A stretch of DNA of 25,675 nt, taken from positions 1-25,675 of the IMG/VR virus record IMGVR_UViG_3300042298_000923; one strand, given 5' to 3'. The notes beneath the pieces are model-generated. The model did not search any database, was not told where the DNA came from, and worked only from the letters and a program-made list of their open reading frames with translations. This stretch comes from a virus. This document shows positions 1 through 15,494 of this stretch, one piece after another. The position numbers and the translations under genes are program-made. Position 1 is the first letter of the stretch. Each line of letters starts with the position of its first letter.

Positions 1-689
1 CCGAACCTATTTCTGGTGGCGTTAAAATTTTGTTGGATTTGTCCTGCATCTAATTCAATATTGTACATTGAAAACAATCCAACTCTTCCAGAATAAAAAT
101 GCCCACCACCATAACTTCCATCAGCAGAACCAAGGCTACCAAAACTAGGACTTGAAATGTTGAATGTTCTCCCAGTTCCCGAATGCCATAGAATCCCATC
201 TAGGTAAATAGACATTCTTTGTGAATTAGCATTTTTTGTAAATACCCAATAATGCCATCCTGTTCTTTCTCCTACCGTTGTTGCTTTAGATATTCTATCA
301 TAAGATCCACCCGAATCACCGCAATCCCAATAAACCGTGTTATCTGACCACGGAATATGTGCATTAATGGTTCTGTTACCGTCGCTTTTTCGTACCCAAA
401 AAACAGAGTTACCACCAACAGTTGTAATATTAATCCAGACAGCAACTGTAATTTGTGTTCCGGATGGAATCGACTCTACTGGTAATAGAGTGTAATCATT
501 TATTCCGTCATAACTCAATGTTGTAAAATTTCTTGAATCAAATGTTGCACCAGAAATATTTGTTGCTAGAGTTGTTGAAACTATATTTGATAAAGTCACA
601 CCTGATCCTGGATAACATTTAGGATTGCCAGCATCTATATGAAGAAGTAACCCATCTGTAACTATTCTTGGATTGTACACAACTGCCAT
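1..689 (-). CDS. LamG/concanavalin-fold tail adhesin, 3' end cut by window edge
   Basis: The frame opens with ATG at 689 and stays open to base 1, giving 229 visible residues. The start lies 2 nt after the TGA of the upstream gene, behind a GGAG ribosome site. Residues 1-30 (YNPRIVTDGLLLHIDAGNP) followed by a beta-rich, Trp/Tyr-rich body match the LamG-like lectin/glucanase fold common in marine phage structural proteins. Core strands include VAVWINI (83-89), WHYWVF (145-150), SIYLDGILW (160-168) and GRVGLFSMYNIEL (201-213). In such proteins the segment around 214-229 (QIQQNFNATRNRF) usually lies close to the stop, so probably only a few codons are missing. Likely role: glycan binding at the tail or fibre tip; the ligand is unknown. 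The gene is visibly more AT-rich than the replication genes (22 of its last 60 in-window bases are G/C). Confidence 0.8.
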   Translation of the reverse strand, partial: MAVVYNPRIVTDGLLLHIDAGNPKCYPGSGVTLSNIVSTTLATNISGATFDSRNFTTLSYDGINDYTLLPVESIPSGTQITVAVWINITTVGGNSVFWVRKSDGNRTINAHIPWSDNTVYWDCGDSGGSYDRISKATTVGERTGWHYWVFTKNANSQRMSIYLDGILWHSGTGRTFNISSPSFGSLGSADGSYGGGHFYSGRVGLFSMYNIELDAGQIQQNFNATRNRF

Positions 690-691
690 GT

Positions 692-1399
692 TCAATACTC
701 CACTTGCAGTTTGGGAACATCCTTGCGCTCGGCATTAACCATGTAGAAGCAGTCAATCTCTCCGCTGCTGCCGATCTTCACGGCTTTGCTGCTCACGGAC
801 TTCACGAAGTGTGGGGTTGCCGAACCAATGGGTGTAAGGGTCACGGTGATGGACTCCTCGTCCACTAATTTGCTCCAATACTTTGGAAGGGTAATGGTGT
901 TCTCTCCCGTGAGCCGTCCACGCACATACACGCCGTGTTCTGGTCCTTCCAACGACCCGTAGTGGAGAGTGGCATTCTTGCGGGTTGGGTGTGGAATCAC
1001 GAAGGACTTGGTTGTTGCGTTCAGGTTTCCGTTGATGGTGACATTGGAACCGAATGTGATGCCACCACTTGCGGACAGCCCTGCGGTGAGGGTTTGCAGC
1101 CCCGTGAATGTGTTGGCACCAAGGGATGCGCCCGTGACTGCACCGGTGGCTCCGTTGAATGATGCCACGAAGTTCCGACGAGCGTATTCGTATACGGCAT
1201 TCTGCGTGGGAACACGGTTCTGTGAAGCAACGGAGCCACCACCCATGTCTGTTCCACCAGTGATCTCACCACCTACCCACACGCCGCTTGCAGTGCCACC
1301 GACCCACAACTGATTTGTGGATGTATTGATAGCAAATTCACCGGTTGTCAGTCCCGATGGCGTGGTGGAACCGCGCTTTATTTTGATTTGCGTGGGCAA
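692..1399 (-). CDS. Short tail-fibre protein with receptor-binding-type N-terminus and conserved C-terminal domain (235 aa)
   Basis: This is the last member of cassette copy 2. Residues 1-48 (IKIKRGSTTP, then GLTTGEFAIN and a VWVGGEI strand) are the N-terminal module shared with the 442-, 544- and 1829-residue proteins and resemble N-termini of phage receptor-binding proteins such as Mtd. Residues 79-104 (SFNGATGAVTGASLGANTF plus GLQT) nearly repeat a segment of the 1829-residue protein. Residues 131-235 (KSFVIPHPTRKN, YGSLEGPEHGVYVRGRL, LVDEESITVTLTPIGS, ERKDVPKLQVEY) form a domain I recall at the C-termini of many marine phage structural proteins. The start must be TTG at 1399: the frame has no earlier ATG or GTG, an in-frame TAA lies just upstream, AGGAG is 9 nt away, and the paralogues align at this residue. 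Exact virion location is unknown. Confidence 0.85.
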   Translation of the reverse strand: MPTQIKIKRGSTTPSGLTTGEFAINTSTNQLWVGGTASGVWVGGEITGGTDMGGGSVASQNRVPTQNAVYEYARRNFVASFNGATGAVTGASLGANTFTGLQTLTAGLSASGGITFGSNVTINGNLNATTKSFVIPHPTRKNATLHYGSLEGPEHGVYVRGRLTGENTITLPKYWSKLVDEESITVTLTPIGSATPHFVKSVSSKAVKIGSSGEIDCFYMVNAERKDVPKLQVEY

Positions 1400-1408
1400 A
1401 GCGTGTGT

Positions 1409-1413
1409 CTCCT
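1409..1413 (-). promoter_or_regulatory. Ribosome binding site AGGAG for a TTG start
   Basis: A perfect AGGAG on the minus strand, 9 nt upstream of TTG at 1399. It decides the start of the 235-residue fibre gene, which has no ATG before residue 52. Confidence 0.65.
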
Positions 1414-1421
1414 GCCCTTAT

Positions 1422-2039
1422 TTAGTAGGTGTCTCCACCCATTACAGCCACCTTCTTGCCACGCTTCTTTGGGGCAATCACCTGTGCTGGTTGCGTCAAG
1501 GAGTCCACTTCTGCCTGTAGTTTTGCCACACGGGACTGCAATTCTGCGTTTTCGGTGGCAAGCAGGTCGCGTTCTGCCTTTGCTGCGGACAGGTGTTCTG
1601 CACGGGACTCCAGTTCTGCAATTCTGACCCTCAGTGCCTCACACTCACGCCCAATCTCGTCCCGTTGTGCGTTGGCAAAACCGATGTCCATGCTTGACGC
1701 ACGCTTCACATCAGCCACCGCGTTTGCAATAGAAGCGTTCAGGTCGCGCTTCTGGTCTTCAAAAGAGCACAGCAGTGCAGACTTTTCCGTTTCCCACGCA
1801 ACAAGTGCGGACTGCCGACCCCGTTCTTCTGCCGCTGCAATCGCTGCTTGGTGATCTGCCTGTCCCTGCTGAAGAGCACTGTGCTTCTCTTGTTCTTGGA
1901 ACAGTTCTTCTGTAAGCCGCTTCTTTTCACTCTCTTCCCATGTCAAACGGGCTTCAAGCAGAATGTTCGTTACAGTCAGGTCTGCAACCCGCCTGTTGAG
2001 CATGGGAACGAGTATGGTTTCGTTTGGATTCTTGTCCAT
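1422..2039 (-). CDS. Coiled-coil protein of the tail cassette (205 aa), paralogue of the 73-aa protein
   Basis: The product is almost wholly helical and charged. Heptad-like Leu/Ala/Glu/Arg repeats run from about residue 20 to 180, for example RIAELESRAEHL and NAELQSRVAKLQAEVDSL. Residues 6-35 (NETILVPMLNRRVADLT and on) align with residues 7-36 of the 73-residue protein at 11305-11526, with 13 of 30 identical by eye. Both end in a Lys/Arg-rich stretch and a short aromatic tail (MGGDTY here). AAGGAAA 6 nt upstream of ATG 2039 supports the start. It lies between the 581- and 235-residue fibre genes, exactly as the 73-residue gene lies between the 769- and 1829-residue genes. Function unknown; a fibre assembly, linker or chaperone role is inference from position and coiled-coil character. 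Confidence 0.85.
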   Translation of the reverse strand: MDKNPNETILVPMLNRRVADLTVTNILLEARLTWEESEKKRLTEELFQEQEKHSALQQGQADHQAAIAAAEERGRQSALVAWETEKSALLCSFEDQKRDLNASIANAVADVKRASSMDIGFANAQRDEIGRECEALRVRIAELESRAEHLSAAKAERDLLATENAELQSRVAKLQAEVDSLTQPAQVIAPKKRGKKVAVMGGDTY

Positions 2040-2070
2040 GATGTATTTCCTTTCACATTAGGGATTGGTA

Positions 2071-3816
2071 TCAGTAACTGCCGCCGTCTATTGCCGTGAC
2101 GGAAGCACTCAATCCACTCACGGTAAAATTCAGAGGATCAAATCGTGCAAGCCCCTTCACCGTGGTGCTTGCGTTTTGTATTGTCATAACAAGGGTTCCT
2201 GTTCCAGAAGACTCTGTTGCAACAGTTGTAGCATCGGCATCACGAATTATAAGTTGCTTATATTCAGGCGCAGCACCAGCACCGTTGGAAGACAACAATC
2301 TTCCCGCTGTAGAGGCACCTAGAACCGTGAGAGAACTGATTCCGTTTGCATACAGAACATCTCCTATGGTATAGGTGGAGCGCCCTGTGCCTCCGTAGGT
2401 TGCACCAACAACTGTTCCCTGCCATACACCGCTGCTAATGGTTCCTACTGCTTGCAGGCTTGATGTGGTTATTCCGCTTCCAAGCGTGCTGCTAGACAGA
2501 ACAGGGGTGCCGTTGATTTCATAAACTTTGCCAGTGACAAGATTCAGGTCTTCGCTGCTTGTCCATGCTCCAGTGGAATTCACCCATGTAAAGGTTTTGT
2601 TCCCCTGACTGGAGTTCAACTGTATACCACCGCCGTCTGCGGCAGCATTGTTTCCTGCTGCTCCGCCTGGACTGTGTGCCAACTCTATGAGTTTGTCGTC
2701 AACCGTAATGGTTGTGGCATTGATCGTGGTGGTGGTTCCGTTGACTATGAAGTTTCCTGCCACCGTGAGTGTGGCACCCACATATAGATCAGAGTCAAAT
2801 GTAGAACCACCGTATGCCTGAATCCTTGTGGTGTTCAGGCTGCTGCTTGTGATTCCCTGCGTGGCTGTGACCAGACGAGAGAAAGATGCTGTGGTTCCTG
2901 ATAGATTGCCTGCAAGGGTTACGCCACCAGCAGCAGAGATTCCGGAACTAGCAGTAAACATGGTGTGTGCCCTGACACCAGACGCGCTTGCGGTAAGACG
3001 GGTGTCATTATCATCATTAATTGTTAAATTATCTGTTGTTATTGTAATACTGGTTAAGTTCCGATTGATTCTGATACCGTTTGCATTATCACCATAGTTC
3101 GGGGCAAGATCACCAATGTAAATGTTAGACGGTGATACAATCGAAACTTCACCGTTCGAAGGCATAACCAGTTCTGCATTTGCACAAAGTCCTCTATGAG
3201 ATTGTGATCTTACGAAAGAGGCACAAACGCCTTCACTGGCTGTGAGCAGACGAGAGAACGATGCGGTTGTTCCCTGTATTGTGTTGGAAAAGTCTACAAT
3301 TCCACCAAATGTAGATCCAGTTGCAACATAAAAACCAGAAGAGGTGCTTGGTATTTCTACACCAGTACCTGTCTGTAGTACTGTTTGTCCGTTCTTTTCA
3401 AAAGTGGTGTTTTGATATGCATCGCTGCTTATTACTGTCAGTCCATAAGAACGCAATTCCATTCCAGAAGTAAAATCAACTACACTATCAAAAGAAACTC
3501 CCTGAATAAATGTATTTTGACCTGTGAATGTGTTGTTGAGGGGCAGGATGTTTGTTCCCGTGCCCATCTGAAATTCTGTTGTCCACCCGCTGTTGGCTGT
3601 GGTGCCAATGAGAGCATAGTATGCAGACACGCCACTGACATAAACCATCATGCCGCGAACACGAAGACGATCAAAAATTGTGTTTAGATCGGCAGTGGTG
3701 CCAACAGTCCGAACACCACCTTTTCCGTGTATGGTGTCGAAGAGTGGATAGTCGTTCTCAGTTGAGAGCGGAGTTAGTTGGGCAGGTACTCGTGTTGTTC
3801 CCACATATTCTGGCAT
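2071..3816 (-). CDS. Modular tail-fibre protein (581 aa), paralogue of the 769-aa protein
   Basis: The N-terminal part (residues 1-70, with FDTIHGKGGVRTVGTTADL and GMMVYVSG) resembles leader domains of marine T4-like phage structural proteins. Then come fibre modules of the type FTGQNTF, FSRLLTA and GISAAGGVTLAGNLSGTTA. Residues about 345-470 match the 769-residue protein closely: LTVAGNFIVNGTTTTIN, VDDKLIEL, ADGGGI, WTSSEDLNL, TSSLQAVGTISSGVWQG. After that comes a GGTGRSTYTIGDVLYA module typical of phage fibres. The protein ends in AIDGGSY, a tail shared with other proteins here. AT-rich unique sequence around 3000-3230 interrupts the repeats. It starts 20 nt after the 442-residue gene, with AGGAAA upstream. 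Likely a trimeric fibre or adhesin component; position in the virion unknown. Confidence 0.85.
   Translation of the reverse strand: MPEYVGTTRVPAQLTPLSTENDYPLFDTIHGKGGVRTVGTTADLNTIFDRLRVRGMMVYVSGVSAYYALIGTTANSGWTTEFQMGTGTNILPLNNTFTGQNTFIQGVSFDSVVDFTSGMELRSYGLTVISSDAYQNTTFEKNGQTVLQTGTGVEIPSTSSGFYVATGSTFGGIVDFSNTIQGTTASFSRLLTASEGVCASFVRSQSHRGLCANAELVMPSNGEVSIVSPSNIYIGDLAPNYGDNANGIRINRNLTSITITTDNLTINDDNDTRLTASASGVRAHTMFTASSGISAAGGVTLAGNLSGTTASFSRLVTATQGITSSSLNTTRIQAYGGSTFDSDLYVGATLTVAGNFIVNGTTTTINATTITVDDKLIELAHSPGGAAGNNAAADGGGIQLNSSQGNKTFTWVNSTGAWTSSEDLNLVTGKVYEINGTPVLSSSTLGSGITTSSLQAVGTISSGVWQGTVVGATYGGTGRSTYTIGDVLYANGISSLTVLGASTAGRLLSSNGAGAAPEYKQLIIRDADATTVATESSGTGTLVMTIQNASTTVKGLARFDPLNFTVSGLSASVTAIDGGSY
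2414..2503 (-). repeat. Paralogous 90-bp block, copy in the 581-aa gene
   Basis: This block encodes the ITTSSLQAVGT...GVWQGT region. It aligns without gaps to 11914-12003 in the 769-residue gene, with about 78 of 90 bases identical by eye. The similarity at DNA level makes it a plausible site for recombination between the two fibre genes. Confidence 0.7.
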
Positions 3817-3835
3817 GGCTCTTTCCTATTCCTGA

Positions 3836-5164
3836 TTACGGGTGATAGACATACACTGGAGTAGAATACGATTCGGTGCTTCTGTATATCTTGTAAACCG
3901 TGGTGAAGCCTTGATCGTTCGTGACCGAAAGTGTTGCTCCTGATGCATATCCTGTGAACGGGATGTCAAAGCCTTCGGTGCTGTTTAGTTTCCAGTTGGA
4001 TAGCGAGTTGTAGTAATCGTGGATGAGTATGTACAGGTATTTGTTTCCTGCACCACCACCGCTGCCAGGACTGAAAGACAGAGATGTTCCTGTGGTGTTG
4101 AACTGCAATCCAGTTCCTGTGGAGGTAATCATTCTGTCTGAAGCCATGCCGGTGGTAACCAATTGGTTTCGGTTTGTTATGGATGTGCCTGTGGTGTATC
4201 CCATATACATCTTGGAATACCATGTAGCCGTCCCAATGGAACGAGAAGCAGTTGCTCCGCTGGTTGTTCCGGGAGATCCTGCCGCAGCGTATGCTGTTGA
4301 CTGACTAGCCTGAACCGTAATTGTGAAAGAGTTTCCAATGGTTGTTGCCATTGCATTCGGAATGGTTCCTGCGCGGTTTGCGTTTGCTCCTGCGCCACTT
4401 CCATAAGCAGTGCCACCAATAATGGTTCCTGAAGCGTAGCCGCTGTAAACAACGGTCATTCCATTTGCATCAATGTTTGTTGGATTGTTTGCCGTCCAAC
4501 CAAAGTTTCTTGAGCCAGCGGAAGCAGCAGTCTGTCCCAACTCAAGATTTCCGGTTGTATACGAACCACTCATGCTCACCACAGAAAGGGTCACCGTTTG
4601 ATACGAGAACAGGAGATTTTCAAGAATTTCAAACACGGTTTTTCCAGACAGGTCTGTGCCGTTAGCGATCCCTCCAACATTTCCTGCGTTGGTCACGCTT
4701 GCCGATCCCCATGTGGCACCCGAAACCAACAGAGCACCGGTAGAACCACCGAAAATGGCAACCACGGACTTCTTCCAATCTCCGCTCAACCCAAGAGTGC
4801 GAACACCATTGTTCGTGACAGTGATGCTGCCTGACGCAGCAGAGATTCCAATATTGGAACCGCCTAGTAGACTCAGAGTTCCTGTCAGGGAGTTCAGGCT
4901 AGCCACACCAGATGTGTTCGTAGCCACATAGTTTGTTACATAATTTTTTACCGCTGCAAGGTTGGGAATCTGAAGAGTAAGCCCTGCGTCAATATCCGAA
5001 GACAGTCCGCTGATACGGGCACCAATCCACGCTGCTGTTATTCCTGCACCACGACCAATATGGAAGGTCTGTTCGGTAGTGTTGAACGCTGGCTCACCAA
5101 GGGAGAGTCCCGAAGCCTGTGTTGGAGCCGCCGTTCCACGGCGTATAATGATTGTTGTTGGCAT
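3836..5164 (-). CDS. Tail-fibre/adhesin protein (442 aa), first gene of cassette copy 2
   Basis: Residues 1-51 (MPTTIIIRRGTAAP, GLSLGEPAFNTTEQTFHIG) are the N-terminal module shared with the 235-, 544- and 1829-residue proteins. Residues 105-122 (NIGISAASGSITVTNNGV) are the short beta-module also seen in the collagen-like and 1829-residue proteins. Residues 169-184 (GTDLSGKTVFEILENL) correspond to residues 106-123 of the 544-residue protein (GDTIPAQGQTVKWVIEDA). A long Gly/Ser/Thr-rich beta region follows. The C-terminus (KYLYILIHDYYNSL ... TVYKIYRSTES) also resembles the 544-residue C-terminus in pattern. AGGAAG precedes ATG 5164. A perfect TATAAATA lies 48 nt upstream, so the gene probably heads a late transcript. 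Ligand unknown. Confidence 0.85.
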   Translation of the reverse strand: MPTTIIIRRGTAAPTQASGLSLGEPAFNTTEQTFHIGRGAGITAAWIGARISGLSSDIDAGLTLQIPNLAAVKNYVTNYVATNTSGVASLNSLTGTLSLLGGSNIGISAASGSITVTNNGVRTLGLSGDWKKSVVAIFGGSTGALLVSGATWGSASVTNAGNVGGIANGTDLSGKTVFEILENLLFSYQTVTLSVVSMSGSYTTGNLELGQTAASAGSRNFGWTANNPTNIDANGMTVVYSGYASGTIIGGTAYGSGAGANANRAGTIPNAMATTIGNSFTITVQASQSTAYAAAGSPGTTSGATASRSIGTATWYSKMYMGYTTGTSITNRNQLVTTGMASDRMITSTGTGLQFNTTGTSLSFSPGSGGGAGNKYLYILIHDYYNSLSNWKLNSTEGFDIPFTGYASGATLSVTNDQGFTTVYKIYRSTESYSTPVYVYHP

Positions 5165-5201
5165 GAGTGCTTCCTGTATTCAAATATTGTGACGCTACCG
5201 C

Positions 5202-5229
5202 ACCGTAAATGTATTTATACCCTTACGGT
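5202..5229. repeat. 7-bp inverted repeat framing the late promoter
   Basis: ACCGTAA (5202-5208) and TTACGGT (5223-5229) are perfect inverted arms with a 14-nt loop that contains TATAAATA. The right arm overlaps the methyltransferase stop codon. No T-run follows on the minus strand, so a terminator is not supported. An operator or chance is possible. Confidence 0.4.
5212..5219 (-). promoter_or_regulatory. T4-type late promoter TATAAATA upstream of the 442-aa gene
   Basis: The minus strand reads TATAAATA, the consensus -10 element of T4-type late promoters (recognised in T4 by sigma gp55). It lies in the largest gap of the window (58 bp), right after the methyltransferase stop and 48 nt upstream of ATG 5164. 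An expected start near 5206 leaves a leader of about 40 nt with room for the AGGAAG ribosome site. Confidence 0.7.
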
Positions 5230-5801
5230 TGGCACAGAACAAAGTATTCCTGATCGTCCAAGCGGTCATCTTCCACTATTCCAAACCGATATATGCCCAA
5301 TCCCTCAAGCATTTCCCCGATCTCTTCGCGGCTGAAATGCACAAAGAAGTCCCGTGGGACGCTGTTTTCGTATTTTTTTCTGATGCTCTCCCTAAACACG
5401 GTGAACACCAACCACTTTCGACACACCCTAATTGACTGCCGCAGTAGGTCGCGCAGCACTTCTTTGTTCCGTGCTTCATCGTGGTCTATGTTGTAAGTCA
5501 CGGTTCCAAACAAACACACAAGATCATACGCCTTTTGCTGCGGTACGGATTGGTATGTGGGGCAGTCGCACAAGGCAAGTGCGTCTGCGCGGATGTCAAT
5601 CGCTTCGTAGTCCGCAGTTATCCCGTTTTCCTGCAACCATCCCCGCAGCAGACACGGACCAGACCCCACATCAAGCACTGATCCGAAAGAAAGCCCTCGG
5701 AGAAACGAAAAACGCCGATAGGCACACTCTCGCCCGTATCCATTTGATTTTGGTGTTCTGTATATGGTAGACAGCAGATAAGAATTCGGATTATGATGCA
5801 T
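5223..5801 (-). CDS. Class I SAM-dependent methyltransferase (192 aa)
   Basis: The Rossmann-type methyltransferase signature is visible: motif I VLDVGSGPC (42-50), acidic strand YEAIDIRADA (65-74) and a motif IV-like YDLVCLFGTVTYN (92-104). A beta strand WLVFTVFRES (130-139) follows. Length suits a small stand-alone enzyme. I chose ATG 5801, which overlaps the end of the 1829-residue gene by 11 bp. The frame is open to 5927, but the extra 42 residues are a shadow of that gene. Ribosome site is weak, so coupling is likely. The target (DNA, RNA, protein or glycan) cannot be told; I see no DNA-methylase DPPY/NPPY motif. It lies inside the fibre cluster between the two cassette copies, which hints at modification of a virion or host surface component, but that is inference. 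Confidence 0.8.
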   Translation of the reverse strand: MHHNPNSYLLSTIYRTPKSNGYGRECAYRRFSFLRGLSFGSVLDVGSGPCLLRGWLQENGITADYEAIDIRADALALCDCPTYQSVPQQKAYDLVCLFGTVTYNIDHDEARNKEVLRDLLRQSIRVCRKWLVFTVFRESIRKKYENSVPRDFFVHFSREEIGEMLEGLGIYRFGIVEDDRLDDQEYFVLCQP

Positions 5802-8800: not shown

Positions 8801-11280
8801 AAGGCAGCAGTTCCACCAACTGTGATTCCATTTACAAAAAGTGCTTCATCCTCTACAAATCCTGGATCCATTCCTGCACCGTTGATCCATAATTTAAGAT
8901 GCTCTAGCGTTGTAAGATACATCTGACTGGGATATTCTACATCTCCATTTCTGGTAACTGCGGATTTGATTAGAATATAATCGTTGGATGGAATGAATGA
9001 TGGACCACTTGCTACAAGGAAATCTTCATAAATTGCAAATGTAATTCCCCTATAGGGTTCTTGCGATGCAACCAATTCACCAAGACCAGTTGTATACAAG
9101 TAGTCTATTCTTGGAAGGATTTCCCAATCATCTCCCGCCCTGTTTACAAACGATATTCCCTGTCCATCAGAGATGAATATATCACCAGTCCGACCATTGA
9201 CAGACTTCACCACATTCGTAGAACTGCTGTTTGCCAACACAAACGCAGTGGTTGCTATCTGTGTGGTGTTGGTGCCAACATTTGCAGTTGGTGCTGTTGG
9301 TATTCCAGTTAGACTTGCATTGTGCAGAGTTACGCCGTTTGCAGCGGATATTCCCTGATTGAAAGTCACCAGACGAGAGAATGCAGCAGTGGTTCCTGAC
9401 AAAGATCCCGCTAGAGTGACACCACCGGCAGCAGAGATTCCTTGACTGAAAGTGACTAGGCGGGAAAATGCAGCAGTGGTTCCTGACAAAGATCCCGCTA
9501 GAGTGACACCACCGGCAGCAGAGATTCCTTGACTGAAAGTGACTAGGCGGGAAAATGCAGCAGTGGTTCCTGATAGATTTCCTGCCAGAGTGACACCACC
9601 GGCAGCAGAGATTCCTTGTTCGGTTGTCACTAGACGAGAGAATGCAGCGGTGGTTCCTGACAAAGATCCCGCTAGAGTGACACCACCGGCAGCAGAGATT
9701 CCTTGTTCGGTTGTCACCAGACGAGAGAATGCAGCAGTGGTTCCTGACAAAGATCCCGCTAGAGTGACACCACCGGCAGCAGAGATTCCTTGACTGAAAG
9801 TGACTAGGCGGGAAAATGCAGCAGTGGTTCCTGACAAAGATCCTGCAAGGGTTACACCACCGGCAGCAGAGATTCCTGCACTGGCTGTTACCAGACGAGA
9901 GAATGCAGCGGTTGTGCCATTAAGAGTATTGTTAACAAAAAGAGGAGGATATATTTGTGCTGAATAAGGATCACCGTTTCCATTAGCAGTGCGAACTAAT
10001 ATACCTGGCTGTCCACCCGGTCGCAATTGAATAGAACTTCCAAATTCACTATTAATACCAGCAGGTTTTGTCATAATATACAAATTTGAAACTTCTGCGT
10101 CGTCCTCACCTGGATCTCCAGAAATACTTCCCTCTCCGGTGGCAAGTAGTCCTATTCCACCCAGTTCATCTCCTAGTCCCCCTGATCCGGTGTATGGATC
10201 GATGTAAGAACTTGGAGATGCACCGTAACCACGAATAATTCTTAAACCAATGGCTTCGGCATTTCCTTTATCTTTTTGTGGTCCTCTATTCAATCCAAAC
10301 TGAAGAATTTCTGTCTGTGAGTCTAGTGTTACTCCACCAACTCTTCCAGAAATTTGCATGGCACTTCCACACAAACCACCGGAATGGCGGAACTGAACAG
10401 CGCCAGTGTCACCCACTCCCACACTTGCAATAGTGACTGTGCCCGTTCCACCAGAAGGAGACACTGAAATTCCGCTGCCAGCCACCGCAGCAGAGACACC
10501 TTGCACCGCACCAGTTCTGCCATTGAAAGAAGTGACCACATTGGTGCTGCTGCCGCTGCTAACAGCAGTCTGCACGAATGCAGTGGTTGCCACCTGAGTA
10601 TTGTTTGTTCCTGGACTGGGTGTGGGTGCTGTTACGCTTCCGCTGAATGTTGCGCCAGCGGCAGAGATTCCCTGTGTGGCTGTGAGCAGACGGGAGAATG
10701 AGGCAGTGGTACCAGTCAATGCCCCATTGAATGTGCTTGAATCTCCTGCTGAAATTCCTCCCAACAAAGTAAATTGGGATGCATTAGAAAATATGGTTTG
10801 GGCTTCAATGCTTATGATACCAGTATTTGGATTTGCTATTATACTTGTATCGTATGGATAGCCTAATGAATTTTCTTCCTGCAATCCCAATGCCCAAGGA
10901 CCAGCAATAACTTGAAACTGAAACCAGTTTCCATCAAATATTGCTTTTGGATATGCACCAGACGCACTGAATCCACTGATTGTTGCAGACGGGGAATTGA
11001 ATGCTATGGATGGAGCAGTCAATACTCGGCTGAATGTGGCAGTGGTTCCCGACAGACTACCTGCAAAGGTCACACCACCAGCGGCGGAGATTCCTGCGGC
11101 AAAGGAGTTCAAACCGGTGAAATTGTTCGCAGACAGACCAGCAAGTTCAATGGTGTTTCCGGCAGTGTCTCCGACAAACATCCGTCTTTGTGTGATGTTG
11201 ACAGCCAACTCCCCGGCAGTCAGCCCTACGGGTGCCGTTGCTCCTGCCGCCATGCTGTATCTGATCTTGATCTTTGCCAT
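5791..11280 (-). CDS. Giant modular tail-fibre protein (1829 aa)
   Basis: Residues 1-50 (MAKIKIRYSMAAG, GLTAGELAVNITQRRMFVG) are the shared N-terminal module. Two stretches ending ATTAFV (near residues 230 and 673, with PTPSPGTNNTQ and PTAPTANVGTNTTQ) match the Phage_fiber_2 type repeat of T4/lambda-like fibres. Residues 469-642 are six 29-residue tandem repeats. Residues about 850-1185 form a larger domain (KVWHSLNDGPTSGLDAGQLYG ... LNRTSGTAFILGRNYP ... AADDARIIQSGQFR) that I recall in other phage fibres. Residues 1269-1343 are three 25-residue beta repeats. The C-terminus (EADNGKIFVINISGKTSITV ... YASNTYHAS) looks like a fibre cap. Unique AT-rich segments lie between repeats. ATG 11280 has no clear ribosome site; it starts 24 nt after the 73-residue gene. 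It is probably the main long-fibre subunit. Confidence 0.88.
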   Translation of the reverse strand: MAKIKIRYSMAAGATAPVGLTAGELAVNITQRRMFVGDTAGNTIELAGLSANNFTGLNSFAAGISAAGGVTFAGSLSGTTATFSRVLTAPSIAFNSPSATISGFSASGAYPKAIFDGNWFQFQVIAGPWALGLQEENSLGYPYDTSIIANPNTGIISIEAQTIFSNASQFTLLGGISAGDSSTFNGALTGTTASFSRLLTATQGISAAGATFSGSVTAPTPSPGTNNTQVATTAFVQTAVSSGSSTNVVTSFNGRTGAVQGVSAAVAGSGISVSPSGGTGTVTIASVGVGDTGAVQFRHSGGLCGSAMQISGRVGGVTLDSQTEILQFGLNRGPQKDKGNAEAIGLRIIRGYGASPSSYIDPYTGSGGLGDELGGIGLLATGEGSISGDPGEDDAEVSNLYIMTKPAGINSEFGSSIQLRPGGQPGILVRTANGNGDPYSAQIYPPLFVNNTLNGTTAAFSRLVTASAGISAAGGVTLAGSLSGTTAAFSRLVTFSQGISAAGGVTLAGSLSGTTAAFSRLVTTEQGISAAGGVTLAGSLSGTTAAFSRLVTTEQGISAAGGVTLAGNLSGTTAAFSRLVTFSQGISAAGGVTLAGSLSGTTAAFSRLVTFSQGISAAGGVTLAGSLSGTTAAFSRLVTFNQGISAANGVTLHNASLTGIPTAPTANVGTNTTQIATTAFVLANSSSTNVVKSVNGRTGDIFISDGQGISFVNRAGDDWEILPRIDYLYTTGLGELVASQEPYRGITFAIYEDFLVASGPSFIPSNDYILIKSAVTRNGDVEYPSQMYLTTLEHLKLWINGAGMDPGFVEDEALFVNGITVGGTAAFQKQATFNALTQFNAGISASGGMTLDGGKVWHSLNDGPTSGLDAGQLYGVTASLYASSLSTGLLYGGLVTINAGNSAAFDVSAGAGYIVTTGATFTAEPNPVITRVSWTAKTGVTLSGLTAQDTTWIYFDSSGNLNQQPAFFTDDQVQSTLAVGALVHPSRAYISLAKTIPNVSYATDKQYEQFIRAFGPLKVSGHSIQANGANLKLNRTSGTAFILGRNYPNDPNNPSVISDNAQTDCTFWRYYRGATAGSFVTVLNQTAIDPENYDDGTGTLNSVPSNKPFTIQRLFFFPGTPSVLGVYYGHASYASISEAANNVNFEDFTEITNTATNAVFAGYLLVKKGTTNLTTAIAADDARIIQSGQFRSTTSGGGTIATNLDSLNDVTISSVQDDDLLIYDTATSQWLNTPLQHIGVTRVNGLSGAVQAVSSFNGRTGAVQGVSAAVAGDGITVSGATGAVTITNAGVTRAVAGTGISVNANTGTVTITNSGVTSLAAGTGVAVSAGTGAVTVTNIGVRSFNGATGAVTGASLGANTFNGLQTISSGGLFVNGGGTTFGASQGVVFEYGLRQTRVLSNIDNAGGLIVDRGTTLGSVGGAPLTVRGGPMRLLQNGGFNITTGNTSGVSTSDCPLTVTSAGNFTLNISPMMSTGLGTYPNLLVLAGNGVADGGINISGSDLILGTKSADGEDYTPVGLKFTGTSFPIRYTTLTANPSGSDKTITLPNATGTVALDAAANTFTALQSFTQGISAAGGVTFASNLAVNGGSITTSAATGNLFNTVATTLNIGGVATTTNLATVASGLTLNIATGANGSDIKNIYIGTGPVGGGSARTTIGYNGGVIVSHGNGITLSSSAGGYVVNIPSATTNITGTLNASGSLNSTGLFTTSGGLSASGGVTFNTPIVSTRMARTSSGVFDTRTGSFSPTEADNGKIFVINISGKTSITVTLEGLSTGWRAKFLCLGGATSFSSTTGNVFGSFGANGSGFQSSTECVEVHCYASNTYHAS
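7252..7476 (-). repeat. Three 75-bp (25-aa) beta-module repeats
   Basis: Three consecutive units fit the pattern (A/L)xAGxG(I/V)xVxxxTGxVT(I/V)TNxGV, such as AVAGTGISVNANTGTVTITN. They lie in the 1829-residue fibre. Related units occur in the collagen-like protein (GISVSGSTGSVTVSNTGV) and the 442-residue protein. Confidence 0.75.
9355..9876 (-). repeat. Six tandem 87-bp (29-aa) fibre repeats
   Basis: Six contiguous units begin GISAAGGVTLAG and end in TFSQ, TTEQ or TFNQ. Two DNA versions of the variable part alternate, one encoding TFSQ and one TTEQ. The copies anchored at 9421 and 9508 are identical over their first 66 bases. The pattern indicates recent duplication with unequal exchange. 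Diverged units of the same type flank the array and occur elsewhere in this gene (near 11014-11100) and in the 581-residue gene (near 2865-2945). Confidence 0.92.
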
Positions 11281-11304
11281 AGTGTATCAGTATGTAGCGA
11301 CCGA

Positions 11305-11526
11305 TTAGTAGACCTGTCCGTCCAACTGTGGCTCCTCACGCTTCTTGCGCTTGGACTGTGTTTCCACCTTTGACTGTAGTTCAGCGATCTGTGTGGACAG
11401 GAAAGCGTTTCTCTGCCGCTCTACCATGAGATTGGCTTCAAGAACAAGATTTTGATTCGTCAGTTCTTTGAACTTGTTCTGCAAAAGGGGAATAACAACA
11501 GTTTCATTGTAATTAGGTTCACTCAT
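11305..11526 (-). CDS. Small coiled-coil protein of the tail cassette (73 aa)
   Basis: Residues 7-36 (NETVVIPLLQNKFKELTNQN and on) align with the 205-residue protein at 1422-2039. A helical region (residues 14-55, with LSTQIAELQSKVE) is followed by a basic stretch SKRKKRE and the tail LDGQVY. It is about a third of the length of its paralogue, which has an extended central coiled coil. AAGGAG 6 nt before ATG 11526 is a strong ribosome site, so good expression is likely. It lies 17 nt after the 769-residue gene and 24 nt before the 1829-residue gene. Function unknown; a short structural linker or fibre-assembly factor would fit the position. Confidence 0.82.
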   Translation of the reverse strand: MSEPNYNETVVIPLLQNKFKELTNQNLVLEANLMVERQRNAFLSTQIAELQSKVETQSKRKKREEPQLDGQVY

Positions 11527-11543
11527 GGGGTTCTCCTTTTATA

Positions 11544-13853
11544 TCACCATGTTCCGCCGTCTATTGTCGCTTCAATTTGAGTGCAACTCAAAACATTTGT
11601 ACTGGCATCAAATGTTATTCCAGAAGCCTTGTCTATCCACAGGTCTTCTGCATCACTTGCATCAGCCACAAAAGTAAGGAACATTGTTCCAGCAGTGGTG
11701 TTTCTGTTTTGAACTTTAACCTTGTTTGCCGTTCCTACGGTGAGTCCGGTGGGAGAAGCAAATGCAGGAAGTCCTGCGGCACCGGCAAACAGAATTTGTC
11801 CATTTGTACCAGTAGCGGTTGCAGTAAGACCGCTGGCTGTCTTGTAAATAACTCCATTGTTTGGAAGAGAATTGATGTTTCCACCAACACCACCGTATGC
11901 CATTCCTATGACGGTTCCCTGCCACACACCAGTGCCGATAGTGCCTACTGCTTGCAGACTTGATGTGGTGATTCCGCTTCCAAGCGTGCTGCTTGTGAGA
12001 ACATTTGTACCAGCAATCTTATAAGCATAAGCAGTTGTGGTAAGGTCTATGTTTTCATTGCTGGTCCATGAATCAGTGTCATTAATCCATGTAAACTTCT
12101 TATCTGTTGCTCCTTTTAGGATGATACCACCATCATTTGCCAATACATCAGTCATCGTGCCTGTGGTGGCTCCAAGCCTCAATTGGATATCATCAACATC
12201 TAGTACCGTTCTATTTACGGTCGTAACAGTTCCCGAGACATAGAAGTTTCCATTGACAGTAAGAGTCTTGCCTATGGTAACATCGTTGTTGAAGTTGTTC
12301 GCAGAACCCGTGAAGGTGTTTGATGCTCCAAGTTGTGCCCATCCACTTGCAGCCGTATTTCCCAAAGAAGACGCATTTGCTGCGGTTCCTGTGACATTTC
12401 CCGTGACATTTCCCGTGACATTTCCCGTGACATTTCCACGAACAGCACCTGCAAAATCAACTGCCTTCTCAAATGTGGTTCCCACACGAACATACATCAC
12501 GCCTTGAGTCGTTCCTCCTACAATCTGTCCTCCGCTTGGACCAATGAGCACATTTCCATTGAAAGCGGCATTCTGTAGAACAGTAAAGGAAATTCCCTGA
12601 CCGAGAGATGTGCCAGCAGGAATATTTGCTAGTGGATATGTTACTCCACCAAGAGTTCCAAATGCGCTGATGCTGCTGAATGTAGCACCACCATTTACCG
12701 TAACAGTACCAGCGGCAGACAGTCCACCGCTAAATGTGCCAAGACCAGTGACCGCAACAGTTGATGCAAATGTGGCACCGCCAGATGTGACATTCAGTCC
12801 TGTATTCAGGGTTTGTAGACCAGTGAAAGTATTTGCGCTGTCTCTTCGTGCATAATTTGATGCGGCGACATTTGCCAAGGTTGTGGCATTGTCTGCTGTT
12901 CCTCCCAAGTTGCCAGTGAATGTAGCGGCACGAACTGCTCCTGCAAAATCAACTGCCCGTTCAAATGTGGTTCCCACGCGAACATACATTACTCCCTGCG
13001 TTCCGCCTGCCAGCACTCCTCCGCTTGGACCGATTAGCACATTCGCATTGAGAGCAACATTGTTTAGAACACTGAATCCAATATTCTGACCAACAGAAGT
13101 ACCAGCAGGAATATTGCTGTATGTGTATGTTACTCCTTGCGGAGGATTTACTGATGTTGGACCAGCGGTTACCGTGCTAGAAAATATTGCTCCAGATCCA
13201 ACAGTCAAACTTTCAACAGAGGTTTGTGATGCAGCAGATATGCCAGAAACAAATCTAGCAGCAGATCCGCTTACAGTCAGACCATTGAATACTGAGTTTG
13301 CTGTGACTGTATCGGTGCTTGCGTTTCCGAGAACAACATTACCATTGAAATTCGCAGCACCTTCAAATATTGCTGTTCCCACAACATCAAGGACACCACC
13401 AACATCAACTCTGCCTGCAAAAGTTGCACCTGATGTGACTGTGAGGACATCGGTAGCCGCATCACCAACAGAAACATTGCCGTTGAGGGTTGTACCACCA
13501 AAAACAAATAGGTTAGTAAAAGTTGCACCAGAAGCCGATATTCCTCCTGGGAAATCTCCACTGCTGCTTGTTGATGTTCCGGATGCAAATTCTTCAAGAG
13601 TTCCTGTGCTTCCACGGAACCAGTATTTGTACGCTAGTGTACTACCACCAGGACCAGTTCTAGCCAAAATCCGCACTTCCATAGACAGAAAGCGGAGTGC
13701 TGGCGGAATAGTTGCTAGAGCATTATTTATAGCCTCGCCAGTGGTTCCATTTGATGCTGAATACGGACCAGACCACGCATCAACTGGAACCGGATTTACC
13801 GGTTCGTATGGCTGAGGAATTTTAATTCCGGGTGTGTATTCGTGAATGGGCAT
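11544..13853 (-). CDS. Modular tail-fibre protein (769 aa), paralogue of the 581-aa protein
   Basis: The N-terminal domain (residues 1-90, with PVDAWSGPYSASNG, EVRILARTG and YKYWFRGSTGTLEEF) is followed by repeated fibre modules (TFTGLQTL, GISASGATFTNL). About 60 residues (NIPAGTS, NVLIGPSGG, GVMYVRVGTTFE, AVDFAGAVR) occur twice. A GNVTG stretch built on a 12-bp repeat lies near residues 472-488. Residues about 530-646 match the 581-residue protein (LTVNGNFYVSGTVTTVN, VDDIQLRL, NDGGIILKG, SLQAVGTIGTGVWQG). It ends in TIDGGTW. ATG 13853 follows tandem stops TAATAA of the upstream gene by a few bases. No clear ribosome site is visible, so translation is probably coupled. Likely a fibre or adhesin subunit. 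Confidence 0.86.
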   Translation of the reverse strand: MPIHEYTPGIKIPQPYEPVNPVPVDAWSGPYSASNGTTGEAINNALATIPPALRFLSMEVRILARTGPGGSTLAYKYWFRGSTGTLEEFASGTSTSSSGDFPGGISASGATFTNLFVFGGTTLNGNVSVGDAATDVLTVTSGATFAGRVDVGGVLDVVGTAIFEGAANFNGNVVLGNASTDTVTANSVFNGLTVSGSAARFVSGISAASQTSVESLTVGSGAIFSSTVTAGPTSVNPPQGVTYTYSNIPAGTSVGQNIGFSVLNNVALNANVLIGPSGGVLAGGTQGVMYVRVGTTFERAVDFAGAVRAATFTGNLGGTADNATTLANVAASNYARRDSANTFTGLQTLNTGLNVTSGGATFASTVAVTGLGTFSGGLSAAGTVTVNGGATFSSISAFGTLGGVTYPLANIPAGTSLGQGISFTVLQNAAFNGNVLIGPSGGQIVGGTTQGVMYVRVGTTFEKAVDFAGAVRGNVTGNVTGNVTGNVTGTAANASSLGNTAASGWAQLGASNTFTGSANNFNNDVTIGKTLTVNGNFYVSGTVTTVNRTVLDVDDIQLRLGATTGTMTDVLANDGGIILKGATDKKFTWINDTDSWTSNENIDLTTTAYAYKIAGTNVLTSSTLGSGITTSSLQAVGTIGTGVWQGTVIGMAYGGVGGNINSLPNNGVIYKTASGLTATATGTNGQILFAGAAGLPAFASPTGLTVGTANKVKVQNRNTTAGTMFLTFVADASDAEDLWIDKASGITFDASTNVLSCTQIEATIDGGTW
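11914..12003 (-). repeat. Paralogous 90-bp block, copy in the 769-aa gene
   Basis: Partner of 2414-2503, with about 78 of 90 bases identical by eye and no gaps. It encodes the same SLQAVGT...GVWQGT segment. Confidence 0.7.
12391..12438 (-). repeat. Four tandem 12-bp units encoding GNVT repeats
   Basis: The plus strand reads GTGACATTTCCC three times and GTGACATTTCCA once, with no interruption. The units encode Gly-Asn-Val-Thr repeats inside the 769-residue fibre. Perfect short repeats like this can change copy number by slippage while keeping the frame. Confidence 0.92.
12448..12627 (-). repeat. Internal duplication in the 769-aa gene, downstream copy
   Basis: It encodes IPAGTSLGQGISFTVLQNAA, NVLIGPSGG, GVMYVRVGTTFE and AVDFAGA. 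It matches 12940-13116 at DNA level apart from scattered changes and one extra codon. Confidence 0.75.
12940..13116 (-). repeat. Internal duplication in the 769-aa gene, upstream copy
   Basis: It encodes IPAGTSVGQNIGFSVLNNVA, NVLIGPSGG, GVMYVRVGTTFE and AVDFAGA. Partner of 12448-12627; the copies are about 490 bp apart. Confidence 0.75.
13724..13731 (-). promoter_or_regulatory. TATAAATA inside the 769-aa gene, possible internal late promoter
   Basis: A perfect minus-strand TATAAATA lies about 120 bp inside the coding region. No gene start follows for 2.2 kb, so a role is doubtful. It is listed because all three TATAAATA sites I found in the window are on the coding strand. Confidence 0.2.
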
Positions 13854-13859
13854 TTGTTA

Positions 13860-15494
13860 TTACGGTTGTGTGACCGTTCCGGTGGTTGTTACATTCCAGT
13901 GTCTAGCATCTCCAAAAGGAACCGCAGCATTCTGAATATAAACATTGTAATTCTTGTTTACACCGCTTGCATCAGGAACTGCCACAATAGTAGTGTTTGG
14001 TTCTCCACCAAAACTAAAGTTTACTACTTGTTGTAGACCTTGATCGAAGAATGTTGCAGACAGTCCATCGGGAACAGCACATATAAAATATGTGTTTGCT
14101 CCAGCAGGACCAATTATTCCGTTCAGTGGGTTGGAAACCGTACCGCTTGCTGAATTGTTTCCGCCTTCTCCATAAGGAGGACCAACTGACGGATCTGGTG
14201 CAATCACCAATCCTGAAGATAGTCCTCGAATCATGGTTCCGTTTAGTGGCTGATTTGTTGTGGCACCATAGAACATCATGTAGTTGAAGTTTATTACACG
14301 AGTAGTAGGAACCGTGTATGTTGTAGTAACTGGTGACCCAGATAAGACCGAATCCCAATAGTCATCGGTAATTTGTGCTTGGAATTCTAGCCTATCAAGT
14401 GAAGCACCTGTTGTTGGTGCTCGGTAGGTGAGTCCAGAAATAGTGCTTGTGGCAGGATTGGGTAGAACGCCGCTTGTTATGCCTGTGTATGAATCATACG
14501 CTCCGTTGAAAAATCTTCTCACTGAAAGAATATAACCAGTCAATGGAATATATTGATTTGCTCTGTTGACTGTAAAGGAGATATTGCTGACAAAAGTGTT
14601 TCCCTTTTCGCGGTTCAGTTCTGTTTCGGTTGCGCCTCCGCCTGCTCCAGTACTGCCAAAAACTCCTGTTCTCAAACTTGGTGCTGATAGAGAGTTCCAC
14701 TGAAAAGATGGAGCAATATTTGTTGAATTTCCTGGAGTAATAGTAAATTGTGATTCCGCTGATGCCCCTGCTCTGTCACTCACCGTCCATCGGTAGTTTA
14801 GGGCTGTTGCCCCAACACCACCGTGTCCAGCCCATCTTCCACCAGAAACAGTGTCTACCAATCGGTTGAATGTGTGGTTAAATGTGTTTGAATATGCTTG
14901 GTTTGTTCCAAGAGCATCATTCTTCAGTGCCGAACTAAGCACCGTATACGCTCCCACATTTCCCCATCTGTATTCCAAAGTTGTTCCAGCAGCACTAGAT
15001 CCGGCAGTAAGAATAGTGTATCCTAATGTTAGTGTTACTGTTCCCGATGTTTGACCAAAAGAAATTCCACCAATAGACGCATAGTTTGTTGTGAGTGATG
15101 TATTTGGATTAATGCGTTCACTCAGAGCGTCTTCGATGACCCATTTTACGGTTTGTCCCTGTGCTGGAATGGTGTCTCCGCGAGTATATTTTCCAAACCA
15201 CTTACCTGTTGCAATATTTACACCAAGATCGGTAGCAAAAGTTAAACCACCACCAGCAACAACACGACTCTCAACCGCAGAAAGTGTGGGAACGGTGGTT
15301 TGAGCATCATCACCGCTCCAGAAAGTGGGTTGATTGATTATCTGCGCTCCCACCCAAACACACACTCCAGCGTTGTTTGCAATATACAGACGATTTGCGG
15401 TTCTTCCGCTTCCCTGCACGAAAGCCATCTCACCAAAGGTCAAGCCTGTTGGTAGACTACTGCCGGTTGTGCGCTTAATCCTAATGATTGCCAT
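13860..15494 (-). CDS. Tail-fibre/adhesin protein (544 aa), first gene of cassette copy 1
   Basis: Residues 1-52 (MAIIRIKRTTGSSLPTGLTF, GEMAF, YIANNAGVCVWVGAQI) are the N-terminal module shared with three other proteins here. Residues 98-131 (KWFGKYTRGDTIPAQGQT, VIEDALSERINPN) form a segment that recurs in phage adhesins and has a counterpart in the 442-residue protein. Ig-like beta-sandwich patterns follow (LEYRWGNVGAY, NYRWTVSDRAGASAESQFTI). Near the C-terminus TYFICAVPDGLSA and NKNYNVYIQNA parallel the 442-residue protein. The gene ends in tandem stops TAATAA. GGAG lies 10 nt upstream of ATG 15494, and a TATAAATA box lies about 120 nt upstream inside the preceding gene. Likely a receptor-binding or fibre component. 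Confidence 0.84.
   Translation of the reverse strand: MAIIRIKRTTGSSLPTGLTFGEMAFVQGSGRTANRLYIANNAGVCVWVGAQIINQPTFWSGDDAQTTVPTLSAVESRVVAGGGLTFATDLGVNIATGKWFGKYTRGDTIPAQGQTVKWVIEDALSERINPNTSLTTNYASIGGISFGQTSGTVTLTLGYTILTAGSSAAGTTLEYRWGNVGAYTVLSSALKNDALGTNQAYSNTFNHTFNRLVDTVSGGRWAGHGGVGATALNYRWTVSDRAGASAESQFTITPGNSTNIAPSFQWNSLSAPSLRTGVFGSTGAGGGATETELNREKGNTFVSNISFTVNRANQYIPLTGYILSVRRFFNGAYDSYTGITSGVLPNPATSTISGLTYRAPTTGASLDRLEFQAQITDDYWDSVLSGSPVTTTYTVPTTRVINFNYMMFYGATTNQPLNGTMIRGLSSGLVIAPDPSVGPPYGEGGNNSASGTVSNPLNGIIGPAGANTYFICAVPDGLSATFFDQGLQQVVNFSFGGEPNTTIVAVPDASGVNKNYNVYIQNAAVPFGDARHWNVTTTGTVTQP

What the first reader, a model, noticed from the sequence alone, without database searches (positions are those of the whole stretch)
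692..15494. A four-gene adhesin cassette is present twice in tandem
Copy 1 (13860-15494, 11544-13853, 11305-11526, 5791-11280) and copy 2 (3836-5164, 2071-3816, 1422-2039, 692-1399) have the same order. The order is: (a) shared N-terminal module plus a GKT/GQT-type segment; (b) a fibre with the VDD...SLQAVGT...GVWQG domain ending in IDGG[ST][YW]; (c) an NET-motif coiled-coil protein; (d) shared N-terminal module with SFNGATGAVTGASLGANTF. Pairs b and c are clear paralogues. Pairs a and d share modules but differ widely in length (235 vs 1829 for d). I know of no description of such a paired cassette; it may give the phage two adhesin complexes or a store for recombination.
Basis: partly seen in the sequence, partly recalled or inferred. 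Interest (0 to 1): 0.75.

Follow-up and report, generated by a model that had tools for sequence, protein, structure and literature searches.

The report
Phage fibre chains with end tags
This stretch of an uncultured T4-like phage encodes several two-part attachment fibres, and its relatives show a simple rule in which a protein ending in a short tag is followed in the gene order by a protein that starts with a particular cap domain, which looks like a code for snapping fibre segments together.

Summary
The eight genes exist, but "a four-gene cassette twice" is only partly right. Pairs b and c are paralogues (b: 41% over ~250 aa; c: 41% over 34 aa). Pairs a and d share an N-terminal cap (Mtd_N-like) that all four carry; their tips differ. 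About four groups of related contigs carry both copies, others one, and the cap tree argues against simple block duplication.

The better unit is a chain. x, b1, b2 and c1 end in one hexapeptide, [ILVM]DGxx[YFW]. In 16 sequences 51 of 872 ORFs end so (0.3 expected). The next gene, ignoring coil c, starts with the cap after 43 of 44 tagged genes but after 3 of 600 untagged ones; in 94 further loci, 60 of 90 against 21 of 625. Loci read starter(tag), linkers(cap+tag), terminator(cap). The window gives x-a1, b1-(c1)-d1, b2-(c2)-d2 and an unpaired a2. Most likely the tag plugs into the next cap; this binding is inferred, not shown. Tips and shafts move between slots, supporting the "store for recombination". 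My searches listed no paper that describes the tag.

The parts
17154..18722 (-). col: collagen-like fibre (522 aa), untagged here; its relatives in G010, G011 and G012 end in the tag
   Evidence: Pfam Collagen E 8e-14
15931..17169 (-). e: virion structural protein, 412 aa, no tag and no cap
   Evidence: PHROG 1645 E 5.5e-109
15497..15931 (-). x: small starter (144 aa from the ATG at 15931; the longest ORF runs to 15961), ends SLDGGEF
   Evidence: orthologue in G002 144 aa
15500..15517 (-). C-terminal tag of x (LDGGEF)
13860..15494 (-). a1: cap (Mtd_N-like) plus tip, untagged; predicted terminator of chain x-a1
15270..15494 (-). cap (N-module) of a1, slot-specific type MAIIRIKRTT
11544..13853 (-). 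b1: starter fibre with VDD domain, tagged IDGGTW
11547..11564 (-). C-terminal tag of b1
11305..11526 (-). c1: 73-aa NYNET coiled-coil-like protein with lysine-rich tail and tag LDGQVY, at the b1-d1 joint
5791..11280 (-). d1: cap plus long shaft plus tip, untagged; predicted terminator of chain b1-(c1)-d1
11056..11280 (-). cap (N-module) of d1 (MAKIKIRYS)
   Evidence: Pfam Methyltransf_23 E 0.004, below its cut-off; 91% orthologue in G002; ATG read
3836..5164 (-). a2: cap plus tip, untagged; no tagged gene directly before it (unpaired cap)
4940..5164 (-). cap (N-module) of a2; AlphaFold2 model of this stretch pLDDT 90
   Evidence: Pfam Mtd_N E 2.7e-6, 27.7 bits against cut-off 26.3 for this piece
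2071..3816 (-). b2: starter fibre with VDD domain, tagged IDGGSY
2074..2091 (-). C-terminal tag of b2
1422..2039 (-). c2: 205-aa NPNET coiled-coil-like protein ending MGGDTY (loose tag)
692..1399 (-). d2: cap plus LEGPEHGVYVRG tip domain, untagged; predicted terminator of chain b2-(c2)-d2
   Evidence: PHROG 17490 E 9e-36
3..695 (-). LamG (concanavalin-like) lectin protein after d2, cut by the contig end
   Evidence: Pfam Laminin_G_3 E 7e-15

Best explanation
The region is a host-recognition locus of a T4-like phage that encodes serial (multi-segment) fibres. Each fibre is built from separately encoded segments whose order is written at their ends: a segment that is not the last one ends in a hexapeptide tag ([ILVM]-D-G-x-x-[YFW], mostly DGG), and the next segment begins with a ~75-residue Mtd_N-like cap. 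The tag of one segment plugs into the cap of the next (inferred). Starters have another N-terminus and a tag, linkers have cap and tag, terminators have a cap and a variable tip but no tag. In the window this gives x-a1, b1-(c1)-d1 and b2-(c2)-d2, plus a2, a capped protein without a tagged partner before it. The small coil protein c is made at the b-d joint, usually carries the tag itself, and is probably an assembly factor or clasp of that joint. The b-c-d unit is present twice because of an old duplication or second acquisition, followed by exchange of tips and shafts between slots. Shown: sequences, paralogy of b and c, tag enrichment, adjacency rule, slot-specific caps, cross-slot exchange. 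Inferred: physical binding of tag to cap, order along the fibre, role of c, role in host recognition.
For: Tag: 51 of 872 complete ORFs (>=60 aa) in 16 sequences end in [ILVM]DGxx[YFW] plus 0-2 residues, against 0.31 expected from 30 internal matches in 251,780 residues; by position all 51 lie in fibre loci. It is on unrelated proteins, and its codons vary freely (D: GAC 33, GAT 18; first G: GGT 27, GGC 11, GGA 11, GGG 2), so it is kept at the protein level. Adjacency: the next gene has the cap after 43 of 44 tagged and 3 of 600 untagged genes in those 16 sequences; 60 of 90 and 21 of 625 in 94 further loci. Order: 91 of 95 neighbouring pairs fit the grammar against a mean of 49.5 when genes are shuffled within the locus (maximum 65 in 2000); 132 of 173 against 83.2 (maximum 103) in the further loci. 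Same-slot switches: col is tagged in G010, G011, G012 and a cap gene follows; untagged col in the window and G001-G006 is followed by e or x, which have no cap. d1 is tagged in G003-G006 and a cap gene follows, untagged in the window, G001 and G002, where the next gene has no cap. No cap-like stretch was found beyond residue 80 of any ORF and no tag-cap fusion was seen (110 sequences). c: of 32 distinct c proteins recognised in the 57 loci, 25 follow a tagged gene, and 16 of these carry the strict tag, 7 a loose one, 2 none; the other 7 have no such neighbour and no tag. 24 of the 25 are followed by a cap gene, the 25th by the contig end. Caps are slot-specific (9 label changes on the tree, minimum 7, shuffled mean 31.2).
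Against: No binding was tested, and the AlphaFold2 model of the b2 C-terminal domain is poor (pLDDT 53, tag unresolved). Four of 95 pairs in the first set break the rule: the a2 cap without a tagged gene before it in the window, G001 and G002, and in L046 a tagged 340-aa protein followed by an x-type protein. In the window and G002 the capped a2 still follows d1 after one intervening gene although d1 has no tag. In the further loci 30 of 90 tagged genes are followed by something else, for example the neck protein gp13 in the DSL-LC02 type or unrelated genes in the AG-345-D19 type, and 21 capped genes follow an untagged gene. Of 15 stretches fetched from 14 isolate or single-cell viruses, only those of AG-345-D19 (one of its two) and DSL-LC02 held tagged genes; several cyanophages have one ~2000-aa untagged fibre at that place. 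The loci are related to each other, so the counts are not independent events, and the further loci were chosen through two fibres that themselves have cap and tag. c2 has only a loose tag, c of DSL-LC02 has none. A tag on c, which has no cap, is not needed by the simplest plug-and-socket model. The counts skip c-like coils by a composition rule of mine.
Confidence: 0.55

Rival explanations
1. The tag is a shared address for one common virion receptor (baseplate, neck or whisker socket) or for a common fibre chaperone; all tagged proteins dock side by side, and the neighbourhood with cap proteins only reflects that both belong to fibre loci.
For: The coil c carries the same tag on a lysine-rich tail and has no cap; tagged genes are followed by gp13 or unrelated genes in the DSL-LC02 and AG-345-D19 types.
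Against: Shuffling gene order within the loci does not reproduce the adjacency; tag and directly following cap change together at the col and d1 slots.
Confidence: 0.25
2. One reading: a four-gene adhesin cassette (a-b-c-d) duplicated en bloc, giving two equivalent adhesin complexes.
For: Same order twice; b and c clearly paralogous, with b1/b2 and c1/c2 each splitting by slot across relatives; d1+d2 caps as one clade not rejected (p 0.216).
Against: a1/a2 tips not detectably homologous in the window; a1+a2/b2 caps as one clade rejected, p 0.027; the a2-type cap belongs to the b2 protein in G003, G005, G006, G011, G012; G011/G012 have only the second unit, G003/G004 lack c2 on their contigs.
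Confidence: 0.1
3. Cap and tag are relics of gene fission: one long fibre was repeatedly cut at the same place, and the ends have no binding role.
For: Tag and cap sit at gene boundaries, and segments are encoded one behind the other.
Against: No fused form was seen among the ORFs of the 110 sequences searched; the tag is conserved against free codon change and sits on unrelated proteins including the coil c.
Confidence: 0.07

Closest known systems
Host recognition cluster (HRC) of pelagimyophages and cyanomyophages (PMC7029224, passages seen)
   Same: Hypervariable island of tail-fibre genes in T4-like aquatic phages; the paper names Mtd, collagen and concanavalin domains among unidentified structural proteins. 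In DSL-LC02 the tagged x and b genes and the coil sit at the corresponding place, between the large structural gene (its counterpart in S-SCSM1 is annotated VrlC) and gp13.
   Different: In the window and its relatives the tagged genes lie beside thyX, primase, gp41, uvsX and gp43; G012 has at the VrlC-gp13 place four other large untagged ORFs. The passages seen do not mention an end tag or an order rule.
T4 long tail fibre gp34-gp35-gp36-gp37 with chaperones gp57A and gp38 (recalled; the order gp10-gp11-gp12-wac-gp13 was seen in RB32)
   Same: One fibre made of several gene products joined end to end, with a small helper protein and a variable distal tip.
   Different: No common tag or cap is known to me for the T4 joints; no sequence relation of c to gp57A was tested.
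Major tropism determinant N-terminal domain (Pfam PF18454 Mtd_N) and phage hyaluronidase N-termini
   Same: The cap matches Mtd_N in 19 of 39 members, best E 1.4e-7; weak structural matches to phage hyaluronidase 6x3m, Mtd 1yu4/1yu1 and Mtd_N proteins in BFVD.
Branched receptor-binding complexes of Ackermannviridae and CBA120-like phages (listings and recall only)
   Same: Several receptor-binding proteins held together, with N-terminal connector parts.
   Different: As I recall, those use larger connector domains; here a C-terminal hexapeptide and a cap in serial order.
Docking domains of modular polyketide synthases (recalled, analogy only)
   Same: The C-terminal end of one protein and the N-terminal end of the next specify the order of a chain, colinear with the genes.
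   Different: No sequence relation; here phage structural proteins.

Membership tests
   BLASTP E 4e-37 and 6.5e-6; slot trees
   hhalign without the cap: 17 columns, E 0.022
   a-group rejected p 0.027; d-group not rejected p 0.216 (tests chosen after the tree was seen)
Mtd_N cap (PF18454) | Match to the Pfam model | tested here: met
   a2 cap 27.7 bits against cut-off 26.3 when scanned as a 75-aa piece, 23.9 bits as whole protein; 19 of 39 caps match at E <= 0.01, 20 do not
Mtd_N cap (PF18454) | Same fold as the Mtd N-terminal domain | tested here: inconclusive
   PDB hits to phage hyaluronidase E 0.39 and Mtd E 2.4-4.8; BFVD Mtd_N protein E 0.008, probability 1; no match at E <= 0.001 in either
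T4-like phage | T4 core replication genes in order | tested here: met
   gp43 52% to P-SSM7; uvsX, gp41 and primase named from their sequences, syntenic in relatives
Host recognition cluster between VrlC and neck gene | Position between the VrlC-like gene and gp13/gp14 | tested here: not met
   Window locus follows gp43...thyX; the VrlC-gp13 interval is elsewhere in G012 and G008; met in DSL-LC02
T4 gp57A-type fibre chaperone (for c) | Sequence homology to gp57A and need for fibre trimerisation | not tested
   No gp57A comparison was run; only size, coil-like sequence and position are alike

The most novel reading that the evidence does not exclude
Aquatic T4-like phages write the order of their fibre segments in a portable two-part code: a C-terminal hexapeptide plug and an N-terminal Mtd_N-like socket, with slot-specific variants that keep several fibres apart, so that shafts and tips can be swapped between slots and phages and still assemble; a small coil protein bearing the same plug helps to make the joint.
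Probability: 0.45. Interest if true: 0.85.

Novelty: new variant of a known kind. Interest (0 to 1): 0.7.

Why it matters
Tail-fibre genes of marine and freshwater phages are numerous, fast-changing and mostly unannotated. A rule at the gene ends would let a reader predict from sequence which fibre proteins join, in what order, and which one carries the tip, and would explain how tips can be exchanged without breaking assembly. It is directly testable with a few recombinant proteins, and one isolated cyanophage (DSL-LC02) carries tagged genes.

Tried and rejected
The structure of the b2 C-terminal domain with 19 sequences was too poor to place the tag and was not searched further. PDB sequence searches with d2, b2 and the cap and b profiles gave nothing of use. 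tblastn of c1 and of a c3-type coil against phage isolates found nothing, and that of the AG-345-D19 coil found only itself; low-complexity masking may be one reason. tblastn of a2 found no isolate. The tag as a DNA site (ribosome-binding or recombination sequence) was rejected because its codons vary freely. A tag-cap fusion was looked for and not found (caps beyond residue 80 at iE < 0.05; two internal matches to a narrower tag pattern, neither beside a cap). An 81-aa protein ending EIGGGTY in G012 was compared with G001, G006, G008 and G004 and no relative was found.

Definitions changed during the work. Tag pattern (0-2 residues may follow): [ILVM]DGxx[YFW]; [ILVM]D[GSC]Gx[YFW]; [ILVM]D[GAC]xx[YFW]; [ILVMF]D[GACS][GAS]x[YFW]; [ILVMFT]D[GACS][GAS]x[YFW]. 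The cap model was first built on the first set (45 of 46 tagged and 3 of 606 untagged in the first set; 36 of 88 and 18 of 645 in the further loci), then iterated over both sets because near-identical caps had been missed; tags were not used in building it. Near-duplicate pairs were counted once; genes called coils by composition were skipped; genes under 60 aa, on the other strand, or in runs with fewer than two tagged or capped genes were left out. In one search my pattern recognised c in about 47 of the 57 loci (count from the list); the other ten were not examined. The b tree left out two b proteins without the domain motif. One search kept the best 80 of at least 600 matching stretches.
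Full report
WHAT IS THERE. The window is a whole IMG/VR record of 25,675 bases, a fragment of a T4-like phage. The main genes lie on the minus strand: gp43, a small gene, uvsX, gp41 helicase, primase, thyX (named from their sequences), then a fibre region. The nearest isolates by gp43 are Prochlorococcus and Synechococcus phages at about 52%. The eight ORFs of the finding are present at the stated places.

PAIR BY PAIR. b1 and b2 match over their C-terminal ~250 residues (41%, E 4e-37) and not over their N-termini; c1 and c2 match over 34 residues (41%, E 6.5e-6). In the relative contig G001 the c2 orthologue is 75 aa and aligns to c1 end to end. a1 and a2 share only the N-terminal ~70 columns; with these removed the profiles align over 17 columns at E 0.022. 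d1 and d2 share the N-terminal module and short stretches. The N-terminal module is common to a1, a2, d1 and d2.

RELATIVES. The contigs G001 (80.5 kb) and G002 (38 kb) have the same layout; contig 3300042478_000817 is nearly identical to the window where they overlap. A search with the c family gave 57 loci. Both c types lie on one contig in 10 of 12 contigs with a c2 type. G011 and G012 have only the second unit; G003 and G004 have a c1 unit and a further capped protein without c2. Trees of c and of the b C-terminal domain separate slot 1 from slot 2 in the phages sampled, with modest support (c1 slot 85/80, c2 slot 95/88; b1 63/70, b2 67/96), so the two units look older than these phages. 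The cap tree shows slot-specific caps (9 label changes, minimum 7, shuffled mean 31.2) and groups a2/b2 with d2 and one other row (91/85). The AU test rejects a1 with a2/b2 as one clade (p 0.027) but not d1 with d2 and d (p 0.216); the second-unit caps alone are one side of a branch with weak support, 62/72. I chose these tests after seeing the tree. A clean duplication of a four-gene block is therefore not supported, though not excluded for the d caps.

EXCHANGE BETWEEN SLOTS. In G002 and G003 the a1 slot keeps the a1 cap (72% and 78% over about 80 aa) but carries an a2-type tip (hhalign of the two together against a2: E 1e-26 over 288 columns). Window d1 and G012 d2, in different slots, share 1350 bp at 92% identity; b1 and d2 of G003, in one genome, share 429 bp at 88.6%.

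THE TAG. x, b1, b2 and c1 end in LDGGEF, IDGGTW, IDGGSY and LDGQVY; c2 ends in MGGDTY. In 16 sequences 51 of 872 complete ORFs end in [ILVM]DGxx[YFW] plus 0-2 residues, against 0.31 expected, and by position all 51 lie in fibre loci. In the contigs G001, G002, G006 and G012 all 12 ends that fit a stricter pattern lie in the fibre locus; outside it only three ends fit a loose one (G001 203 aa NIGSGF, G006 251 aa AVSFKF, G012 81 aa IGGGTY). The codons behind the tag vary freely. Of 32 distinct c proteins recognised, 25 lie directly behind a tagged gene, of which 16 have the strict tag, 7 a loose one and 2 none; the 7 that lie elsewhere have neither neighbour nor tag.

THE ORDER RULE. Ignoring the coil c, the gene after a tagged gene starts with the cap in 43 of 44 cases, the gene after an untagged one in 3 of 600. 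As a string of genes the 16 loci read: starter without cap but with tag, any number of linkers with both, terminator with cap and no tag (exceptions: the unpaired a2 cap in the window, G001 and G002, and a tagged gene followed by an x-type gene in L046). 91 of 95 neighbouring pairs fit, against a mean of 49.5 and a maximum of 65 in 2000 shuffles. I then fetched 94 further loci through b-type fibres of Marine virus AG-345-D19 and Synechococcus phage DSL-LC02, both of which carry tagged genes. There the rule holds for 60 of 90 tagged genes against 21 of 625 untagged ones, and 132 of 173 pairs fit against a mean of 83.2 and a maximum of 103. Some misses look like tag or cap variants by eye (ends TVNGGNY, ATFNGGNF; starts such as VAVPNINEGQIALD); others are plain exceptions, such as a tagged fibre followed by gp13. 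The further loci share ancestry and were selected through capped and tagged proteins, so P-values overstate independence. In isolates the tag is not general: of 15 stretches from 14 viruses, tagged genes were seen only in AG-345-D19 (one of two stretches) and DSL-LC02. The strongest argument is switching at one slot: col is tagged in G010, G011 and G012, where a cap gene follows, and untagged in the window and G001-G006, where e or x follows; d1 is tagged in G003-G006, where a cap gene follows, and untagged in the window, G001 and G002, where the next gene has no cap, although a2 still follows one gene later in the window and G002.

READING. The window then encodes x-a1, b1-(c1)-d1, b2-(c2)-d2 and the unpaired a2. 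In G005 and G006 the chain reads b1-d1-b2-d2 with the a2-type cap on b2; in the window lineage d1 has no tag, a2 carries that cap, and b2 has another N-terminus, as if one long chain had been cut into two (inference). So 'a' is the end of the chain before b. c lies between a tagged and a capped gene in 24 of 25 cases, the 25th being cut by the contig end. The cap is Mtd_N-like (19 of 39 match Pfam Mtd_N; model pLDDT 90; weak structural hits to phage hyaluronidase and Mtd, none at E <= 0.001). I propose that the tag plugs into the next cap and that c helps. No binding was tested.

KNOWN OR NEW. Hypervariable fibre loci in aquatic T4-like phages are known as the host recognition cluster between VrlC and a neck gene (PMC7029224, passages), metaviromic islands of marine phages hold tail-fibre genes (PMC3909814, passages), and modular exchange is known for T4 fibritin and long tail fibres (PMC3797505, passages). 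In G012 the VrlC-gp13 place holds four large untagged ORFs, one with a T4 gp12-like stretch, so the tagged locus is an additional one there. Searches for the tag or for an end-to-end code listed no paper whose title or abstract start describes it; the library is open-access only, and beyond the three papers above I saw listings. Multi-segment fibres are a known kind; the end code is the new part, hence 'new variant of a known kind'.

Noticed in passing
L084:1884-2102 (G001:C1); G002:C1:32635-32784; L058:9977-10228; L061:9977-10192: A third NYNET coil paralogue (c3), outside the fibre cassette and without the tag; function unknown.
   Followed up: partly
window 9341-9909: 87-bp tandem repeat (6.5 copies) inside d1, a repeated shaft unit (SGTTAAFSRLVT...GISAAGGVTLAG).
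   Followed up: no
window 5223-5801: Methyltransferase-like gene between the two units, with relatives in G002 (91%), L030 (54%) and L058 (41%).
   Followed up: no
L010:68-1505 (G001:C1:33048-34485): uvsX appears as two overlapping reading frames, as if interrupted near its C-terminus.
   Followed up: no
L014:13287-15357: Three LamG-like proteins in tandem after d2, where the window shows one.
   Followed up: no
L079:17217-19178 (G012) and G012:C1:64999-65244: The fibre locus is bounded on its far side by a ribonucleotide-reductase-like gene; separately, an 81-aa protein elsewhere ends EIGGGTY.
   Followed up: partly
L136:8299-9155 (Synechococcus phage B23): Two small proteins before a large fibre end in IDLGEY and IDMGEY, possibly a variant of the tag in an isolate.
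   Followed up: no
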